Shown piece by piece: positions 43,874-62,751 of a DNA stretch of 64,000 nucleotides. Location of the stretch: assembly GCF_036250735.1 (NCBI RefSeq), contig NZ_CP109430.1, positions 9,672,001 through 9,736,000 of the forward strand, read 5' to 3'. Under the pieces are notes generated by a model, which had not been told where the DNA came from, ran no database searches, and was given only the letters and a program-made list of their open reading frames with translations. The translations under genes and the position numbers were made by a program. Source of the stretch: Streptosporangium sp. NBC_01495. GTDB lineage: Bacteria; Actinomycetota; Actinomycetes; Streptosporangiales; Streptosporangiaceae. Each line of letters opens with the position of its first letter. The stretch's first letter is position 1.

Positions 43874-45664
43874 TCACCCTTGCTTCCCGTGCTTCCCGGC
43901 TCGACGTCCCCGGCCTATGTCAGCCAACTCCGCCCGGCGATTCACAGAAGGCGCAGCGCCACGTCGTGAAGCTTCGTCTGTACCCCTTGCTTTACCGGCT
44001 TTACCGGCTTTACCGGCTTTACCGACGGGCACGGCCTGCCCTGGAGTACGTTCTCGCTCGGTGCGGGTGGGAACGGTCGGCTGCTCCTCAACAGGCATTC
44101 TGGTCACGGTGAGGTGCACGCTGCCTCGGTTGTTCCCGTAGAAACCCCAGGCGTCGTTGGCGAAGGCGTACAGATAGCCGCTCCTGGTCACCCGGCAGCA
44201 TGTGTCGGCGCCAACGGCGATGCGTTCGTGGGACTTGTACTCACCGTCAACCGCTATCGCATCGTTGGCGACGACGCCGACAAGCGACATCCACGGCATG
44301 TTCTCCTCCCTGCGCGTGCCGACAAAGTTCGCCATCTTCTTCCCCGTCACCAGCTGGAACAGCTTCTCGCCCTGCCCCAGCAGCGTGCCCACGAGCCGGA
44401 GTCTCTCCACCAGAGGATTGAAGCGGCGCAGACCCGTGATACCGGCGGGACCGGACAGGATGCCGACATCGCGCCACCGGCCTTCAGCCGTGAAGCGATA
44501 GTCGCCGGCTTCAAGGTAGAGCCCTGTCTCGTTCCACGGCTCGTGGGCGAACACCTCAACCGTCTTGCTCTGCTCTGGAGCAAGCACCCGGGTAGGCCGG
44601 TAGGGCCCGCTCGTGATGGGCGGGTTCTGGTACCGGTCATATACCGACTGGTGGATCAGGGGGATCGTCGCGTCCGGGTCGATTTTGGGCACAGCCCGAG
44701 GCCGCGGCTGTAGAAAGATTTCGAGCAGCGGCTCGAGTTGCGGGGCGGCCAAGGGCTGGAGCACGCCGACCACACCATGGTCGGCGTGCAGAACGTCGAG
44801 CGGATTGGGGTTGATCTGGTTTTTCACGGTCGTCTTGTAGAAACCGATGCCGACCGCCCTGCGCGCTTCGTCGATCATCCACCGCAGCGAGCAGTCGCTC
44901 AGCCCCCTTTGCGGATGACCGCCACCGACGTCCACGTGGCTACCGGGAAACCACACCTGCTTGACGATCTGTTCGGTCCCGTACGGCTCCGACCACAGCG
45001 TGGGCGTATAGGGACTGCGGCGCTCGTCCATGGCCACGGCGTGGCGACCGTGCTTGATGTACGGGTTGAGCCGCACGTCGTGAAAGTCGTGCCGGTGCAG
45101 TGGGTCCAGAAGGCTGAGCCAGCCCATGTAGGCCGGAATGCCGAGGGCGCCGACGGTTTCCCACACTCCGATGAAATGTATTGGGATCTGGTCGCAATCG
45201 TCCGGGTCCCAGCGAAAGGTGAGCCCGTTTCGCCATTCACGACCTTGGGGGTCACGCTTTCTTTGCCGGTACCCACGATCGTACAGATCTTTGATCTGAG
45301 GCCAGAGCTCGGCCTCGTCTACCTTGGCATTGTCGATTAGCCCGCACGCCGAGATCATCCCGGCGAGGCTTCGGGCCGTGTAGGCACCGCGGCTGAATCC
45401 GAACAGGGAGATGCGATATCCCGGAACGTATCGCATGGTCAGCCAGAGATAGGCGTCCATCACATTGTCGGACAGGCCCAGCCCAACGACTCCCCCCAGC
45501 AGTCTGTTGCTCAGCGTACCGACGCCGGGCTGGTAGTAAGCCAATTGGCGGTCGCCGTCCATGCCTGTCTCGGTGAGGGCGTTGTACAGCCGGCAAACAT
45601 TGGTGACCGACTCGTTCTGTGGAGTACTCCAGGTACCGTCGCAGCACACGATGAGATGGGTCAT
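43874..45664 (-). CDS. DUF2235-domain hydrolase (Tle1-like)
   Basis: The 596-residue protein starts MTHLIVCCDGTWSTPQNESVTNVCRLYNALT. Its nucleophile elbow is SLFGFSRGAYTARSLAG (Ser in G-F-S-R-G), and further signatures are FIGVWETVGALGIPA and WFPGSHVDVGGGH, which match DUF2235 alpha/beta hydrolases related to Tle1 lipases. The C-terminal third carries a beta-rich region (LYLEAGDYRFTAEGRW) resembling a LecA-like or PITH-like module, then a (GKA)n repeat encoded by a tandem CTTTACCGG tract. It may be a lipase or esterase effector. It lacks a signal peptide. Confidence 0.82.
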   Translation of the reverse strand: MTHLIVCCDGTWSTPQNESVTNVCRLYNALTETGMDGDRQLAYYQPGVGTLSNRLLGGVVGLGLSDNVMDAYLWLTMRYVPGYRISLFGFSRGAYTARSLAGMISACGLIDNAKVDEAELWPQIKDLYDRGYRQRKRDPQGREWRNGLTFRWDPDDCDQIPIHFIGVWETVGALGIPAYMGWLSLLDPLHRHDFHDVRLNPYIKHGRHAVAMDERRSPYTPTLWSEPYGTEQIVKQVWFPGSHVDVGGGHPQRGLSDCSLRWMIDEARRAVGIGFYKTTVKNQINPNPLDVLHADHGVVGVLQPLAAPQLEPLLEIFLQPRPRAVPKIDPDATIPLIHQSVYDRYQNPPITSGPYRPTRVLAPEQSKTVEVFAHEPWNETGLYLEAGDYRFTAEGRWRDVGILSGPAGITGLRRFNPLVERLRLVGTLLGQGEKLFQLVTGKKMANFVGTRREENMPWMSLVGVVANDAIAVDGEYKSHERIAVGADTCCRVTRSGYLYAFANDAWGFYGNNRGSVHLTVTRMPVEEQPTVPTRTERERTPGQAVPVGKAGKAGKAGKARGTDEASRRGAAPSVNRRAELADIGRGRRAGKHGKQG

Positions 45665-54366: not shown

Positions 54367-54375
54367 TCTGTTCTG

Positions 54376-54431
54376 CGGAGGCTCGGGGATTTGAACCCCG
54401 GATGGGCGGTAAACCCAAACCGCATTAGCAG
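54376..54431 (-). pseudogene. tRNA-Ser(GCT) 3' fragment (att site)
   Basis: The minus strand contains the anticodon loop CTGCTAA (anticodon GCT), variable arm, T arm CGGGG-TTCAAAT-CCCCG and AGCCTCC with discriminator G. The 5' half is absent. Intact T stem and terminator suggest this is the more recent of two remnants. It is expected to be the left att site of the element that continues to the right, with the intact tRNA-Ser gene beyond the window. Confidence 0.85.
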
Positions 54432-54628
54432 TGACCAGATGTAGCGTTCACCGGTGTCCGTAGACGTCCTGAGCTGGGAAGCCGTACGTCAGCGGGCACC
54501 GGTGTACGTGCACGAACTGCTCACCTGATTGCTCACCTCTCTGCATCCCTCTGACGAGGACGAATCCCGCAGACTAGGGTTGAGGCGCTCGACGATCTTT
54601 CTCCTCGGACACCAAAGGAACGGGACCG

Positions 54629-55025: not shown

Positions 55026-57800
55026 CTACACCTTCTTACCACAACAACGCTTAACCTTCTTTCTTGAACCGCACAGGCAAGGAGCATTGCGGCTCAAATT
55101 TCCATGGATTAAACGACGAGATTCGCTGATTGCTCTATCTAGAAGCGAAAAACTTTCTTGTGTTTGCGGATGATTTTCCCCCAAATTCTCTAAGTGTGCT
55201 TCAACCACTCCTCTAGCCTCAGTTTCGGCGAGCTCAAACTGACCCATACCTAGCCTAGCTATAACTAGACTATTTCTCACCTTCAAGGTAAAGACGTTCC
55301 CTTTGCCCAAAATCTCAGACAATTCTTCAACAACATTTTGCAGCTCAATTGCCGCCTCTGCATATTTTCCTTTTTTCACAAGGATTACTGCGAGATTATT
55401 ACGACTCTTCAGCGTTTCGGGATGTTTAACTCCTAATACTCTTGAGCGAATCTCAACAGTCTCTCTAATTTCCCTTTCAGCTTCCTCGTGCCTTCCCATA
55501 TCGCTTAGGAGGTTCGCCAAATTATTTCGACTAATCAAAGTATCAGCATGGTCTTCTCCGAGAAATTTTTTCGATAATTCAACAACTCGCTTGCTCTTCT
55601 CTTCGGATTCTTCAAGCTGGCCCGAATCCCGCAAGAAGCTAGCAAGATTGCTAAGAGAGGTAAGAGTATCGGGATGAGAATCACCTAACGCTCTACGACG
55701 TAGCTCTAAAACCTCTCTAAGCTCCTCTACCGCTTTCTCTACAAATCCCATTCCTCCCAAAGTGCACGCCCTAACATCTCGAACTGTCAAGGTCTCCGGA
55801 TGGTCATCACCGAGCAGCTCAGTTAAGTGATCAACTAGTCGACGCGTCTCGGACTCCGCTTCTTTAAAATTGCCGAGTGAACGAAAAATGTTGATTTGAT
55901 GCTTCCGTCCATAAATAATTTCGGGAAGCCCGTTGTTCGAAATATCTTTATTGCCTATATTGGCCTTCTGTATTTCATTCGAAGCTTCCTTTATGCGGCC
56001 CATTTTATGCAGCGCGGCTGCAAGATCTATATGACATGCAAGGGTTTGCGGGTGTCGCTCTCCAAGGAGTTCCCGCGAAAGATCGAGAGTATTTCGGACC
56101 TCTATTTCAGATTCAGAGAAGTGTCCCGCGTCACACAACATTGATGCAATATTCCTACGAATCATAAGCCCTTTCAAACTTTTTCTACCGAAAATGTGAT
56201 CTGCAAGATCTCCAGCAGCCAAAATTTCACTCAAAGCATCGTCACGTCGCCCTAAGTTCCACAGTATTGCTGCACGATTATTTCGAACAATCAGCATAAC
56301 TTCACTTTCTTCCCCCTGTGATGACATGGAAAAATTGAAAGCTTGAGTAATTATATTGAAGGCGCTCTCGTAATTGCCCTGTACGCGCTCGAACGCTGCG
56401 AAACTGTTTAAGACCATGCAGATAGATTCGTCATCGGGCTCATTTCCACTTGGATATATTTGGTCGGCGAGGCATCTTAAGTGGGGAGCCAGAGAGCGCA
56501 GCAAAGGCCACGAATCTACTTCAGAATCTGGGTCAGCAGGGATTACACGCCGAATCCAAAACAAAGCAATAGTAGCAAGGGCTTGAGATTCGTCTTCCGA
56601 ATCAATGGATATTAAAAGGACGGACCGCAGTAGGCGATGCATACTTATAAAGTCATCTTTTAGATCGATCAAGCTATATGAAGCAAGCAAGCCTAGCGTC
56701 TCATCAAAATCTACGACATCATTATCATGCGTAAGAAGTATTCTAGGAATGACATATGGCGCATAATGAGCAAGGGCTTTTAGAACAGTAATGACTATAG
56801 GATTCCGCACCTGAAGGCGTTCGAGGGTTATCTTCCATACGCGAGCAATTGTTTCTTGTGAATCCCTTTCCTCGCTGTGTGAATTATAAGTGCGACTAGG
56901 ATTTCTAACAAGTAATTCGAGATATCGAGATGCGCTAATTCTAGATTGATTGATGTATGCGGAAGCTTGGTCTAGCGCGAGAGGAAGATGGCCTAGTTCT
57001 TCAACAAGCTCATCTATGGTGGAACTATCACCGATCAAGTCAGGTTCGATAATTTGAATAACTAAACCTGTGGCCTGCGACGTAGTTAGCACATTGAGAG
57101 GGACTTTAAGAATTCGATCCGGCCATCGTACATTTCGGCGCGTGGTAACAATTATATGGCCGGACGACAATTGCGCCAGTAAATGTTTAACATCTGCCGG
57201 AGCTTCAACGTTGTCTAGGATTAGCAACCAACCCGAATTACTCTGAAACCAACTTAACGCCCATTCTGAAATCTGTTCAATGCTACCCAAAAGGGAAATT
57301 TGCGGGTAGATGCGCATAGCAAGATTCGCGAGCCCTTCTTGTACTCCTCGAACGCTATCTGCGGCCACCCACCAAATAGTCTTATAATCTTTTCGCCACT
57401 TCTCTGCATAGTGCAATGCTAATTCAGATTTACCTACTCCCCCCAGGCCACATATTACTACACTGTGTCTAATTTCATGCGTCCCTAATAATGCTTTTTC
57501 GATTTGCTCTAGCGCATCATTGCGACCGACGAATGTCCCTGTCGGCTTTCGAGGAAGGTTATTCACTTCTTGAATATTCACGATCTTAGATGGAGGGAGT
57601 AACCCCTCTCCACTGATCATTATGTTTGTACTATTGTCTCCAGTCGAAGCTATTCCCGAAATAGTGTGAGCGGATATTGATCTATCTCCCGATGCGTTTA
57701 AGTGGGAAGGATCTGATGGCCGACTGTTACTCATACTAATATCAGCCCCTGATTTCGCGCCGAATTGCAGGATTAAGCTCATAACTACTGCATCAATCAA
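55026..57800 (-). CDS. STAND NTPase: NB-ARC, TPR repeats and SEC-C tail
   Basis: The 924-residue protein has P-loop CGLGGVGKSELAL (residues 117 to 129), Walker B GWLLILDNVE, HIIVTTRRN and LGHLPLALDQASAYI, which are NB-ARC motifs. At least eight TPR-like repeats (residues about 470 to 880) contain H-P-x-T-L and N-N-L-A segments, and the C-terminal SEC-C zinc motif is RNAPCLCGSRKKVKRCCGKK. Residues 36 to 55 (ASGDRSISAHTISGIASTGD) repeat a motif of the upstream membrane protein. TTG 57800 follows the upstream stop directly, and ATG 57782 is an alternative. GC is far below the rest. It is a candidate immune sensor. Confidence 0.88.
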   Translation of the reverse strand: MIDAVVMSLILQFGAKSGADISMSNSRPSDPSHLNASGDRSISAHTISGIASTGDNSTNIMISGEGLLPPSKIVNIQEVNNLPRKPTGTFVGRNDALEQIEKALLGTHEIRHSVVICGLGGVGKSELALHYAEKWRKDYKTIWWVAADSVRGVQEGLANLAMRIYPQISLLGSIEQISEWALSWFQSNSGWLLILDNVEAPADVKHLLAQLSSGHIIVTTRRNVRWPDRILKVPLNVLTTSQATGLVIQIIEPDLIGDSSTIDELVEELGHLPLALDQASAYINQSRISASRYLELLVRNPSRTYNSHSEERDSQETIARVWKITLERLQVRNPIVITVLKALAHYAPYVIPRILLTHDNDVVDFDETLGLLASYSLIDLKDDFISMHRLLRSVLLISIDSEDESQALATIALFWIRRVIPADPDSEVDSWPLLRSLAPHLRCLADQIYPSGNEPDDESICMVLNSFAAFERVQGNYESAFNIITQAFNFSMSSQGEESEVMLIVRNNRAAILWNLGRRDDALSEILAAGDLADHIFGRKSLKGLMIRRNIASMLCDAGHFSESEIEVRNTLDLSRELLGERHPQTLACHIDLAAALHKMGRIKEASNEIQKANIGNKDISNNGLPEIIYGRKHQINIFRSLGNFKEAESETRRLVDHLTELLGDDHPETLTVRDVRACTLGGMGFVEKAVEELREVLELRRRALGDSHPDTLTSLSNLASFLRDSGQLEESEEKSKRVVELSKKFLGEDHADTLISRNNLANLLSDMGRHEEAEREIRETVEIRSRVLGVKHPETLKSRNNLAVILVKKGKYAEAAIELQNVVEELSEILGKGNVFTLKVRNSLVIARLGMGQFELAETEARGVVEAHLENLGENHPQTQESFSLLDRAISESRRLIHGNLSRNAPCLCGSRKKVKRCCGKKV

Positions 57801-58259
57801 CTAAGAGGCTTCCGAAGAGCCATCTCCAGTAGAAACAACTCCGAAAATATTCTGTGCAGCAACGGATCGTTCCCCAGAAGCATTAACTACTACGTTAGCT
57901 TCAGAGGCGGGCTGAGGATTTTGGAAAGCAGTGACTGGAACAGTCGATGCTATTTCAGGCGAATTGCCTTTCGACGTGTCCCCAGTTGTAACAGTTCCCA
58001 TAATAGTCTGCGCAGCTATTGATCGTGCTCCTGCAGAGGTCACATGTACAGCCGTAGAATCCACCCCAGATTGCAGACTTCGACGAGCGAGCACTACCCC
58101 ATAAACTGAGATACCCAGACCAGCCGACCCAATGAATACGCCAATTACACTGGCCCACTTGTCAGCGTCGTCAAGGCCTGCTTTGAGGAGAAACATTCCT
58201 AACCCCACCCCGGCAAGCCCTACTACTAGCACTCCAGCTAACCACCACTTGCTCGTCAT
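57801..58259 (-). CDS. Two-TM membrane protein sharing the STAND N-terminal motif
   Basis: The 152-residue protein has two membrane helices (WWLAGVLVVGLAGVGLGMFLL and WASVIGVFIGSAGLGISVYGVVLA) and a cytosolic or extracellular tail with two copies of one motif: SAGARSIAAQTIMGTVTTGD (residues 75 to 94) and ASGERSVAAQNIFGVVSTGD (127 to 146). A third copy is in the N-terminus of the next gene. Its stop touches the next start, so the two are translated together. It is probably the membrane partner or anchor of the STAND protein. Confidence 0.8.
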   Translation of the reverse strand: MTSKWWLAGVLVVGLAGVGLGMFLLKAGLDDADKWASVIGVFIGSAGLGISVYGVVLARRSLQSGVDSTAVHVTSAGARSIAAQTIMGTVTTGDTSKGNSPEIASTVPVTAFQNPQPASEANVVVNASGERSVAAQNIFGVVSTGDGSSEAS

Positions 58260-58961: not shown

Positions 58962-60554
58962 TTACTCTATGGTTGGAAGGTTCACCCGCTGACCGCCGAT
59001 GTCCGCCAGGCGTCGCAAGCCATGCGTCAGGGCAAACAGCCCTTCGTTGCTCCATGCAGGGTCGAGAATCAGTGACCTGAGCACGGAACGGTCCAGAGTG
59101 GAATAGCGCCTCAGGCTGCTTGATTCCCAGTTGGCTCTTATAAGTCCTCCGTACTGCCCCCACCACTCCTCGTCCTCTATGACGATCAGGCTGGCGAACT
59201 CGAAGTTTCCGCTCACCAGGTTGAGCCCGAATCCCGTGCACTCCATCCGCCAATGGGAGCCCTTCGTATGATCGTGCAGCCACCTCATCGGCTCTGACAG
59301 CCGGCTCGGGTGCATCGGATCAGCGTCGAGCAGACCCCCTTCGGTGGAGTCGACGTCGTCCCTCCCGAAGAGCTCTTCCTCCATCTCGCGCTCCAGAGTC
59401 CTCTCGATCTGCACGTCTTCCGCGTAGTCGACGAGCGGCTCGTGAAATGCCTTGGGGATCACAGCCAGTCGACGGGCCGCGTTCAGCACATGGCCGGAAC
59501 GTTCCTGGATCAGTAGGAGGTAGTCGGGTGCACCGCGGCGCGCCCGGCTGCTGGGGCGGGCAACCGCGAACAGGGCCAAGGTTCCGCCGGCGCACAGGCG
59601 CCGATCCAAACCAAGTACGGCGTTCACGTCAGGCAGGTAGCGATCGCGCAACGGCAGGTTGCCGGGAGCTATGGACCTGCCTTCCGCGATGGCGTCGATG
59701 AGCTCCCCCTCCAGGAGGTCCATGGTGAGGGCGTAGCTCACGAAATCCGTGATGCCTACGGATCCCTCGATCGCTTCAGGGGACACGTCGATACCGGTCA
59801 GCCTGTAGAGCGGAGTGTTGATGATGCGGGCGTTGGTCGCCAGAGCCTCTGCCAGGCGCCGAGCCGCCGCATCCGCACCGATTTCGTCGATCACAGCGGG
59901 TACGACCGCTTCGTCGGTGTCGACCAGTTGAAGTCGATCGCGGCTGGCGAGCTCCAGCTTCAAATCAAGCCACTGTTTCCTGACCAGCACGCTAGTCGCG
60001 GCGACCCCGCCGTCCGCCTGCGCGCTGTACGGCTGATGCTCTCCGAAGCCGTCGGCATAGTATTCCGAAAGCGCACTCGCGATCTGATCCCTGCTGACGA
60101 GGACGCGCCGATGAGCCCGGTCCTGAAGATCGCAGGGATCGATTTTCGCGAGCTGCTCAGCGACTGTTCTTCGGCTGCGACCGTGGCTCCAACCCGCTCG
60201 TTTGTCCAGCCACTCCAGTGCGGCAGCGACGTTCTTGTCGCTCGCGAGCCGTCTTTCCGCTTCCACCGACGCAGTGCTGTCTACGTTTACGGAGGGTGGA
60301 ATCTCTTCCGAAGCTATCGGCTCAGCAGAAGCGAGCAAGGCGAATCGTGCTTTCGTGTCCTCCGGGGACCGGTAGAGCAAGGTGTTCAGGGCTCGCTGAA
60401 TCTCTACTGTCGGGACGAGCTCTGGCTCCGCATTCCATTTGGCCACCGTCCGAACCGCGGTGCCGAGTTCGCCGGCGAAGCCCTCGTTCGTCAACCGGAG
60501 CGCTCTCTGAAGAGCACCTGCGAGCTGACCGGTCCATTGCTCTACGACTTCCAC
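58962..60554 (-). CDS. HTH protein with large sensor-like domain
   Basis: The 530-residue protein begins with a helix-turn-helix region (ALQRALRLTNEGFAGELGTAVRTVAKWNAEPELVPTVEIQRALNTLLYR, residues about 14 to 62). It then has a region with an acidic, NUDIX-suggestive segment (RTLEREMEEELFGRDDVD) and a long C-terminal part of mixed alpha/beta pattern. The GTG at 60554 is nine bases after GGGAG, better than TTG 60560. The E-R-E-M-E-E-E-L stretch recalls a Nudix box (REx2EExG) but lacks its glycine, so nucleotide binding rather than catalysis is possible. Confidence 0.7.
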   Translation of the reverse strand: MEVVEQWTGQLAGALQRALRLTNEGFAGELGTAVRTVAKWNAEPELVPTVEIQRALNTLLYRSPEDTKARFALLASAEPIASEEIPPSVNVDSTASVEAERRLASDKNVAAALEWLDKRAGWSHGRSRRTVAEQLAKIDPCDLQDRAHRRVLVSRDQIASALSEYYADGFGEHQPYSAQADGGVAATSVLVRKQWLDLKLELASRDRLQLVDTDEAVVPAVIDEIGADAAARRLAEALATNARIINTPLYRLTGIDVSPEAIEGSVGITDFVSYALTMDLLEGELIDAIAEGRSIAPGNLPLRDRYLPDVNAVLGLDRRLCAGGTLALFAVARPSSRARRGAPDYLLLIQERSGHVLNAARRLAVIPKAFHEPLVDYAEDVQIERTLEREMEEELFGRDDVDSTEGGLLDADPMHPSRLSEPMRWLHDHTKGSHWRMECTGFGLNLVSGNFEFASLIVIEDEEWWGQYGGLIRANWESSSLRRYSTLDRSVLRSLILDPAWSNEGLFALTHGLRRLADIGGQRVNLPTIE

Positions 60555-60714
60555 GGACAACAGCTCCCTGAGTGGGGGAAGGGAGGTGCACTACCGGTGC
60601 ACTGGTGATGCATCGGTGGTTCATGGGCTGGTCCGAAGGTAACAGACAGACTCCCTATCAGACAGGACGAGCACAGGATGCGCGTCTCTTCTGGCTGAGA
60701 AGGGAGGTGGGACC

Positions 60715-61920: not shown

Positions 61921-62685
61921 CTATTTCGCGGCTCGGGTCTTGTGAACAGGCAGCGGGTAGGCGACTTCCAGAGTGTCTCCGCGTACGACGATCTCCTCCA
62001 TGATCACGGGGGTTCTGTCGGCGTGAGTGATCCTGGTGACGTGAAGCAGAGGCGTGCCGGGCAAGAGGCTGAGCGCCGTCACCTCGTCCGGCATGGGCAT
62101 CCGGGCGCGTACGTGCTCGGTCCAGCGCACGCCCTTCGTGCTCGTCTCGAAGTGGGCGTACAGCGCGACGGGCTCGGGCAACCTTGGATCGTCGGCCCAC
62201 GGCGTCTTCGCCGCGACGCTGAAGGGCATGGTCAGCTTGTGGGAGCGTCGTGCGTCGCCCGCGATCTGGACGGTGGCCCGGACGAGCATGGGCTCCCCTG
62301 CGGGGACGCCGAGAAGGTCGGCGTGCGCCACGGTGGCGTCTTCCCGGTAGAAGGTCGGCTCTCCCAGGTCACGCCAAACGGTGTCGCCGATCTCGGCATA
62401 GATACCGTCCGCGCTACGTGTCAGACCGCGTTCCTCGGTGTGAGCGGGGCGTGCGTACGGCGAGCGGACAAAGGTGCCACGGGGACGCTTGACCTCGACC
62501 AGGCCCTCACTCTTCAGCTCGTTGATGGCCTGGCGGATGGTGGGGCGTGACAGGCCGAACTCGTCGGCGAGCTGTTGCTCGGACGGCAGGAGCTGGCCGG
62601 AGGGGAACGCTCCGGTGAGGATCTGTTCCCGCAGATAGTCGGCGACCTGCTTCCAGCGGGACACAGGAGCCTTGATCTCCACCAT
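61921..62685 (-). CDS. GntR/UTRA-type repressor (KorSA-like)
   Basis: ATG 62685 follows GGGAG at eight bases and gives 254 residues. The GntR winged helix is SRWKQVADYLREQILTGAFPSGQLLPSEQQLADEFGLSRPTIRQAINELKSEGLVEVKRPRGTFV. The UTRA ligand domain ends in VTRITHADRTPVIMEEIVVRGDTLEV. GntR repressors of this type control transfer genes in pSAM2-like elements (KorSA). It is divergent from the small-gene operon and the two palindromes lie between them. TTG 62697 is an alternative start. Confidence 0.88.
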   Translation of the reverse strand: MVEIKAPVSRWKQVADYLREQILTGAFPSGQLLPSEQQLADEFGLSRPTIRQAINELKSEGLVEVKRPRGTFVRSPYARPAHTEERGLTRSADGIYAEIGDTVWRDLGEPTFYREDATVAHADLLGVPAGEPMLVRATVQIAGDARRSHKLTMPFSVAAKTPWADDPRLPEPVALYAHFETSTKGVRWTEHVRARMPMPDEVTALSLLPGTPLLHVTRITHADRTPVIMEEIVVRGDTLEVAYPLPVHKTRAAK

Positions 62686-62751
62686 CCGGTCTCCCAACCA
62701 GGGCCCTGACAGGCCCTTAGAACCTTGCTTGTTTTCCCGGCTCGGGAACTC

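What the first reader, a model, noticed from the sequence alone, without database searches (positions are those of the whole stretch)
55026..58259. STAND NTPase and membrane partner linked by a shared repeated motif
The sequence shows three copies of one motif: SAGARSIAAQTIMGTVTTGD and ASGERSVAAQNIFGVVSTGD in the two-TM protein, and ASGDRSISAHTISGIASTGD in the N-terminus of the adjoining NB-ARC/TPR/SEC-C protein. NB-ARC proteins are known STAND sensors, several of which act in phage defence. A shared short repeat in both a membrane protein and the sensor suggests homotypic docking, so the sensor could be held at the membrane or a membrane pore be recruited on activation. The pair is low in GC, translationally coupled and sits as cargo in a mobile element.
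Basis: partly seen in the sequence, partly recalled or inferred. Interest (0 to 1): 0.85.

Follow-up and report, generated by a model that had tools for sequence, protein, structure and literature searches.

The report
Amyloid-motif immune receptor and membrane effector
A soil bacterium carries, on a mobile DNA element, a two-gene unit in which an immune-receptor-like protein and a small membrane protein share the same short repeated motif, most likely so that the switched-on receptor can template and switch on the membrane protein, as prion-like signalling does in fungi.

Summary
The 20-residue motif occurs twice in the tail of a 152-aa two-TM (2TM) protein and once near the N-terminus of the adjoining NB-ARC/TPR/SEC-C protein. 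A profile built without the window's copies finds those three places in the 11.1-Mb genome (E<=2.5e-8; next 0.99). The pair lies in a 13.3-kb element bounded by a 60-bp repeat at tRNA-Ser.
Best reading: an amyloid-type NLR signalosome of the known BASS kind, with a 2TM hairpin as effector, and usually two effector motif copies to one receptor copy, as in fungal HET-S/NWD2. Across 43 2TM-receptor pairs the tail resembles its own receptor's N-terminus far more than others' (0 of 20,000 permutations), also after control for relatedness of both partners (partial Mantel r=0.49, 0 of 2,000). Different motif classes ride on the same 2TM domain, and this motif also rides on a second, helical effector type. 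In 9 of 12 2TM-NTPase fusion genes the linker holds no detectable motif.
Not shown: amyloid formation, killing, phage defence. AlphaFold gave no fold for the tail. Many 2TM genes have no receptor found beside them. Dyrka 2020, which defines BASS and Bell, was not readable here.

The parts
57801..58259 (-). 2TM effector-like gene, 152 aa
   Evidence: ORF; member of a 2TM family found in 120 of 315 genomes of the same taxonomic family
58077..58259 (-). 2TM domain, aa 1-61 (two hydrophobic helices joined by a GLDDADKWAS turn)
   Evidence: alignment A1; AlphaFold helices 5-26 and 29-67, low confidence; charge pattern N-in/C-in
57978..58037 (-). effector motif copy 1, SAGARSIAAQTIMGTVTTGD
57822..57881 (-). 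effector motif copy 2, ASGERSVAAQNIFGVVSTGD
55026..57800 (-). STAND/NB-ARC-TPR-SEC-C receptor ORF; likely start ATG at 57734 (aa 23) rather than TTG at 57800
57636..57695 (-). receptor motif copy, ASGDRSISAHTISGIASTGD
57426..57449 (-). Walker A, GLGGVGKS
   Evidence: the N-terminal 428 aa match a plant RPW8 NLR (E 5.7e-4) and AfsR (E 0.015) in the PDB
55131..56423 (-). TPR array, likely sensor region (approximate limits)
   Evidence: Pfam TPR_12/TPR_10
55035..55091 (-). SEC-C motif, aa 904-922
   Evidence: Pfam PF02810 E 8.7e-4, just below cut-off
54374..54433 (+). att-like repeat (left end of element); the identical 60 bp lie 3.6 kb beyond the window (window-equivalent 67599-67658) in tRNA-Ser(GCT)
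61921..62697 (-). GntR/UTRA regulator of the element; FtsK/SpoIIIE-type protein, excisionase-like HTH and integrase follow beyond the window

Best explanation
This is a two-gene amyloid-type NLR signalosome. SHOWN: the motif is shared by the two proteins and tracks partners across related loci. INFERRED: in the resting cell the 2TM protein sits as a hairpin in the plasma membrane with its disordered two-repeat tail in the cytoplasm, and the STAND protein is an autoinhibited monomer. A ligand read by the TPR region (unknown, probably of a phage or mobile element) triggers NB-ARC oligomerisation; this clusters the single N-terminal motifs, which fold into a short cross-beta (beta-arch) template; the template converts the two tandem motifs of the 2TM protein; the induced clustering of the 2TM hairpins opens or disrupts the membrane and kills or arrests the infected cell. 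The receptor's single motif acts like r0 of fungal NWD2, and the effector's pair like r1/r2 of HET-S.
For: Leave-out profile finds only these three places in the genome below E 0.9. 43 pairs: own receptor N-terminus ranks first for 12 and in the top three for 26; mean score 66.7 vs 36.6 non-cognate, 0 of 20,000 permutations; 19 less redundant pairs: rank 1 for 11, rank 4 or better for 18; partial Mantel given 2TM and NTPase similarity r=0.49, 0 of 2,000 permutations reach it, their maximum 0.17. Within this motif class p=0.006 (10 pairs). The same 2TM domain carries clearly different motifs, usually shared with the neighbour NTPase; the same motif sits on small helical proteins just upstream of Walker-A proteins with a motif (L179, L180, L181). 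Two effector copies to one receptor copy in 7 of 8 2TM pairs of the family search, and in the MAG pair L154. Positive-inside pattern puts the tail in the cytoplasm. 12 fusion genes: 9 linkers no better than shuffled, 3 with a motif-like stretch. Cargo of an integrative element; similar pairs on actinomycete plasmids.
Against: AlphaFold gives no ordered tail (pLDDT about 35-43). The profile has no PDB hit, so no sequence link to HET-s. Of 112 non-fused 2TM tails, 49 have no Walker-A ORF in the fetched stretch (many stretches only 1.5 kb each side), and only 32 of the other 63 have a neighbour scoring in the top 5%. Receptor-only loci exist (L189, L198). Within the class, the own receptor motif ranks first for only 4 of 11, one of them tied. 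The motif is kept in one of the 12 fusions (L097, E 4.7e-7) and in another fused protein, L171. No toxicity, amyloid or defence data; no PADLOC defence family.
Confidence: 0.65

Rival explanations
1. The motif is a homotypic docking tag that forms an ordinary ordered complex (like the effector-associated domains of conflict systems), with no amyloid templating.
For: All covariation and swapping data fit any homotypic contact; no cross-beta fold was predicted.
Against: About 25 residues, disordered in prediction, G/S/T-rich, often in tandem, and on the same effector domain interchangeable with RHIM-like and other motif classes (classes named by eye); EADs as described in PMC7159879 (passages seen) are small, mostly helical domains.
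Confidence: 0.2
2. The 2TM protein is only a membrane anchor: it holds the sensor at the membrane, and the real effector is elsewhere.
For: 2TM is also fused N-terminally to NTPases, which fits an anchor as well as an effector; no enzymatic effector domain recognised in either gene.
Against: The same motif pairs Walker-A proteins with small helical proteins in the same gene position; two tail copies to one receptor copy looks like signal reception; no further effector domain is recognised in the receptor.
Confidence: 0.2
3. A non-defence role: element maintenance, development, or the FxSxx-COOH peptide system after which NCBIfam names the receptor.
For: NF040586 FxSxx_TPR above cut-off; some plasmid homologs annotated fxsT.
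Against: The genome's FxsB genes above the cut-off lie at 1.68 and 2.99 Mb, more than 6.7 Mb from the pair. The FxSxx peptide gene itself was not searched for.
Confidence: 0.15
4. The motif copies are a by-product of recombination between neighbouring genes, without function.
For: Pairs are adjacent and here on mobile DNA.
Against: Copies differ at many synonymous and non-synonymous sites yet keep the pattern; a motif is detectable in only 3 of 12 fusion genes but in 42 of 43 separate tails; association survives control for relatedness of both partners.
Confidence: 0.03

Closest known systems
BASS amyloid signalling pairs: NLR plus Bell effector in multicellular bacteria (Dyrka et al. 2020; original not held, described in PMC7889193, PMC8086366, PMC12261475, passages seen)
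   Same: Adjacent genes; motif at the NLR N-terminus and the effector C-terminus; motif sometimes repeated on the effector side; actinomycetes. The window's motif also occurs on small helical proteins, Bell-like in architecture only, upstream of Walker-A proteins.
   Different: The effector is a 2TM hairpin family; Bell is described as a helical bundle with one transmembrane helix (PMC7889193). No Bell profile was at hand. Whether the motif is one of BASS1-10 could not be checked; that it is BASS1 is only my guess.
Fungal HET-S / NWD2 (HET-s related amyloid motifs)
   Same: Two motif repeats on the membrane-acting effector and one on the NLR; adjacent genes (PMC9815663, passages seen, and recall).
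   Different: No sequence similarity detected in the PDB search; no structure obtained.
SLATT 2TM pore-forming effectors of bacterial conflict systems (PMC7159879, passages seen)
   Same: Two-TM protein proposed there as a pore-forming effector next to a nucleotide-binding core protein.
   Different: Only weak SLATT_4 matches (best E 0.013) in 3 of 27 members; here coupling is by a shared motif, there by a nucleotide signal or fusion.
FxsT / FxSxx-COOH system TPR protein (NF040586)
   Same: NTPase-TPR region above the family cut-off.
   Different: N-terminal shared motif and SEC-C end; FxsB over 6.7 Mb away.
Effector-associated domains (EADs) of bacterial conflict systems (PMC7159879, passages seen)
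   Same: Homotypic module shared by core NTPase and effector, adjacent copies most alike.
   Different: EADs are small folded, mostly helical domains; this is a 25-residue motif.

Membership tests
BASS-type amyloid NLR signalosome | STAND/NLR protein with a short motif near its N-terminus | tested here: met
BASS-type amyloid NLR signalosome | same motif at the C-terminus of an effector-like protein encoded next to it | tested here: met
   across relatives
BASS-type amyloid NLR signalosome | effector carries the Bell domain | tested here: inconclusive
   No Bell profile held. The 2TM profile did not pick up the two proteins with a published-type BASS3 motif, L037 and L040 (absent from the hits), nor the helical proteins with the window's motif. 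These two helical groups are themselves not alike by BLASTP (L181 vs L037). Other effectors (CHAT, TIR) are reported for BASS (PMC7889193)
BASS-type amyloid NLR signalosome | motif belongs to BASS1-10 | not testable with these tools
   profiles and paper not held
BASS-type amyloid NLR signalosome | motif forms amyloid / cross-beta | not testable with these tools
   AlphaFold tail unordered
HET-S/NWD2 (HRAM) | two effector repeats, one receptor repeat | tested here: met
   window 2:1; 7 of 8 2TM pairs in the family search
HET-S/NWD2 (HRAM) | sequence homology to HRAM | tested here: not met
   no PDB chain matched by the motif profile at E<=10; HRAM profiles were not at hand
HET-S/NWD2 (HRAM) | beta-solenoid fold | tested here: inconclusive
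FxSxx-COOH system | FxSxx_TPR profile above cut-off | tested here: met
FxSxx-COOH system | radical SAM FxsB next to it | tested here: not met
SLATT 2TM effectors | SLATT profile match | tested here: not met
   SLATT_4 only as weak matches (best E 0.013) in 3 of 27 members
Known anti-phage systems in PADLOC-DB 2.0.0 | profile match of either protein | tested here: not met
   only weak partial E1-E2/E2 matches to the C-terminal SEC-C region of the receptor

The most novel reading that the evidence does not exclude
The 2TM hairpin is an undescribed, widespread effector class of bacterial amyloid immunity: one membrane-active module that changes sensors by swapping its amyloid tail motif (RSxAA-TGD, QARD, RHIM-like QIG, QAGGD, STGD and others), keeps a HET-S-like 2:1 repeat arrangement in this class, and mostly lacks the motif when fused covalently to the NTPase, so the motif is an exchangeable, templating substitute for a covalent link.
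Probability: 0.42. Interest if true: 0.75.

Novelty: new variant of a known kind. Interest (0 to 1): 0.6.

Why it matters
If true, prion-like signalling in bacteria is not tied to the Bell domain. A minimal effector (about 65 residues in the membrane) with swappable tails would give a small, testable system for two open questions: whether bacterial amyloid NLR pairs kill cells and protect from phage, and how motif specificity keeps several pathways apart in one genome (this genome holds four 2TM genes; three tails carry different motifs by eye and the fourth gene is an NTPase fusion).

Tried and rejected
Pfam, NCBIfam, PADLOC and PHROGs for the 2TM protein: nothing above a cut-off; for 27 domain members only weak Pfam matches (best E 7.9e-4, in one member). 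PDB search with the motif profile: no hit. AlphaFold with four sequences: low confidence (mean pLDDT 49.7), so no fold search was made. Calling the second, helical effector type 'Bell': not borne out by sequence; L181 and L037 are not alike by BLASTP and Pfam has no family for four of these proteins. Translational coupling through TTG: doubted. Phage records: no homolog of the NB-ARC part at E<=1e-5. Promoter/terminator scan: about as many sites as in shuffles. Regex classes of tails were too loose to quote as counts.

Dropped rows: 2 of 45 candidate pairs (L068, L136) for short tails, 3 of 115 non-fused tails (L054, L068, L136) for the same reason; of the matches listed without a locus I fetched 80, not all, and that list was itself cut; L005-L008 and L024 were left out of the domain set, and L034 failed its pattern. 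The 14 fused entries are 12 genes (L032/L059 and L028/L060 are the same). The probability of the novel case went from 0.45 to 0.42 on checking, because Bell could not be tested.
Full report
Observation. On the minus strand a 152-aa ORF (57801-58259) is followed by a 924-aa ORF (55026-57800). The motif is at aa 75-94 and 127-146 of the first and aa 36-55 of the second. Copies share 11-12 of 20 residues; of the identical residues 3 of 11, 5 of 12 and 8 of 12 use different codons. A 25-position profile of 23 motif copies finds three places in the 11.1-Mb genome with E<=1.7e-10, the next being 1.14. Rebuilt from 20 copies without the window's three, it finds the same three places at E<=2.5e-8, the next being 0.99. 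So the motif is, at this sensitivity, unique to this pair in its genome.

Receptor. NCBIfam NF040586 (FxSxx_TPR) scores 439.5 bits against a cut-off of 300, with TPR repeats and a C-terminal SEC-C just below its cut-off; NB-ARC itself is below Pfam's cut-off. GLGGVGKS and LLILDN are in place, and the PDB search finds a plant RPW8 NLR (E 5.7e-4) and AfsR (E 0.015). It is a STAND protein. The genome's FxsB genes above the cut-off lie more than 6.7 Mb away, so a role in the FxSxx peptide system is not supported by position.

Effector. The 2TM protein has no family above a cut-off. A 27-sequence alignment shows a conserved W, G-rich helices and an LDxADKxAS turn. The family occurs in 120 of 315 genomes of the same taxonomic family but in 5 of 296 sampled across the phylum, the own genome included. 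Contigs of this family have the lengths of named Microbispora, Microtetraspora and Acrocarpospora contigs; Microbispora is Streptosporangiaceae, so the host is inferred to belong there. Over 122 members the mean net charge is +2.1 before helix 1, -1.25 in the turn and +1.0 after helix 2, so the tail should be cytoplasmic.

Modularity. In 153 loci there are 129 2TM ORFs of distinct sequence (a few are one gene cut differently): 14 fused to a Walker-A protein (12 genes), 45 with a Walker-A ORF just downstream, 70 without by that rule. Tails differ in motif class, and the downstream NTPase usually bears the same class, as read by eye. In 43 usable pairs the own partner ranks 1st for 12 and in the top three for 26, the worst rank being 18; mean local score 66.7 against 36.6; 0 of 20,000 permutations reach the observed mean. 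In 19 less redundant pairs the own partner ranks 1st for 11. The partial Mantel correlation of tail similarity with receptor N-terminus similarity, controlling for the 2TM domain and the NTPase domain, is 0.49 (0 of 2,000 permutations reach it; maximum 0.17). L047 and L101 have 2TM domains of similarity 0.75 but unrelated tails (0.09), receptor N-termini (0.07) and NTPases (0.05). Within the window's motif class the own-pair score is higher than chance (p=0.006, 10 pairs), but the own partner ranks first for only 4 of 11, the window among them with a tie.

The window's motif class. 20 of 315 family genomes have it at E<=1e-3. Read: 8 have an adjacent 2TM-receptor pair; 3 have a small helical protein with the motif upstream of a Walker-A protein (G331 and G321 look like close relatives; in G005 the receptor copy is weak, E 0.42); 1 (L188, the same gene as L156 of Microbispora triticiradicis) has 2TM, motif and NTPase in one protein; 8 have only one-sided or weak matches. 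In 7 of the 8 2TM pairs the effector has two copies and the receptor one; in G309 it is one and one. L154, from an actinobacterial MAG, is also 2:1. L171, from another family of the phylum, fuses a membrane stretch, the motif and a Walker-A protein; the 2TM profile does not match it. On plasmids, Streptomyces vietnamensis pSVL1 and a Streptomyces sp. NBC_00015 plasmid carry two-copy 2TM genes upstream of TPR receptors whose N-termini hold one diverged copy, read by eye (profile E 0.77 in NBC_00015, none in pSVL1); in pSVL1 the annotated receptor start misses it. Micromonospora maris pVMKU has a small membrane protein and a Walker-A protein sharing a related motif by eye; the 2TM profile does not match there.

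The helical effector type. L180 and L181 are alike (54 of 108 residues over the aligned part, motif included) but not like L037, a protein with a BASS3-type motif. I call them Bell-like only in architecture; no Bell profile was at hand.

Fusions. Against the 43 tails of separate pairs, the linkers of 9 of 12 fusion genes score no better than shuffled linkers; L085 (71 vs shuffled maximum 68), L094 (120 vs 78) and L097 (101 vs 72) do, and L097 keeps one clear copy (profile E 4.7e-7). By the same yardstick 42 of 43 separate tails score above z=3. This fits a motif that replaces a covalent link, but the nine are mostly other NTPase types, so lineage could also explain it, and L097 and L171 kept the motif.

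Against. Of 112 non-fused tails, 49 have no Walker-A ORF in the fetched stretch, and 32 of the other 63 have a neighbour whose N-terminus scores in the top 5%; many stretches have only 1.5 kb of flank. One partner is divergent rather than downstream (L002). Receptor-only loci exist (L189, L198). AlphaFold predicts the helices at low confidence and nothing for the tail; the motif has no PDB match. Amyloid formation, toxicity and defence are inferred.

Mobile element. A 60-bp exact repeat lies at 54374-54433 and at window-equivalent 67599-67658, in tRNA-Ser(GCT). Between them are the pair, a GntR/UTRA regulator, an FtsK/SpoIIIE-type protein, an excisionase-like HTH and a phage-integrase-family protein. 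This looks like an actinomycete integrative and conjugative element (label recalled) of 13.3 kb with the pair as low-GC cargo (44.5% and 51.2%). No empty site was looked for.

Comparison. The architecture is that of BASS pairs as described in PMC7889193, PMC8086366 and PMC12261475 (passages seen of each). HET-s-like repeats are noted for BASS4 on the Bell side (PMC8086366, passage). Control: with a published BASS3 peptide I found small proteins with RHIM-like C-termini (L037, L040), and downstream of L037 an ORF with a similar motif; the 2TM profile did not pick these up. A motif-bearing 2TM effector was not mentioned in the passages I saw of PMC8086366, PMC12261475, PMC7889193, PMC9815663, PMC7885112, PMC12881547 and PMC7159879 (the last names SLATT 2TM effectors). 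The paper searches listed none by title or abstract start, but Dyrka et al. 2020 is not held. I therefore call it a new variant of a known kind.

Noticed in passing
window 54374-54433 and window-equivalent 67599-67658 (L204): 60-bp direct repeat at tRNA-Ser(GCT) bounding a 13.3-kb integrative element; the right end lies outside the window.
   Followed up: yes
L002 (own genome, C1:7.27 Mb): A second 2TM gene, divergent from a Walker-A protein gene; both carry a HNEI-GTV-G-QARD motif.
   Followed up: partly
L026, L033: 2TM genes with a QARD/QGRD tail followed by a formyltransferase-like gene (by eye) instead of an NLR.
   Followed up: no
L003, L077, L088: 2TM genes followed by a membrane protein whose N-terminus carries a VGGDV-type motif; no NTPase seen in the stretch. 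Possibly another kind of partner.
   Followed up: no
L050, L051, L075, L078, L082: Tails that carry two different motif classes in series (STGD type, then YQAGGDQ type).
   Followed up: no
window 43874-45664 (-): 596-aa protein with a T6SS Tle1-like phospholipase catalytic domain (PF09994, E 3e-78).
   Followed up: no
window 58962-60560 (-): 532-aa protein next to the pair, inside the element, with no Pfam, PADLOC or PHROGs match at the limits used.
   Followed up: partly
L205 (Streptomyces vietnamensis pSVL1): The annotated receptor start misses an N-terminal motif copy, which lies upstream in frame.
   Followed up: yes
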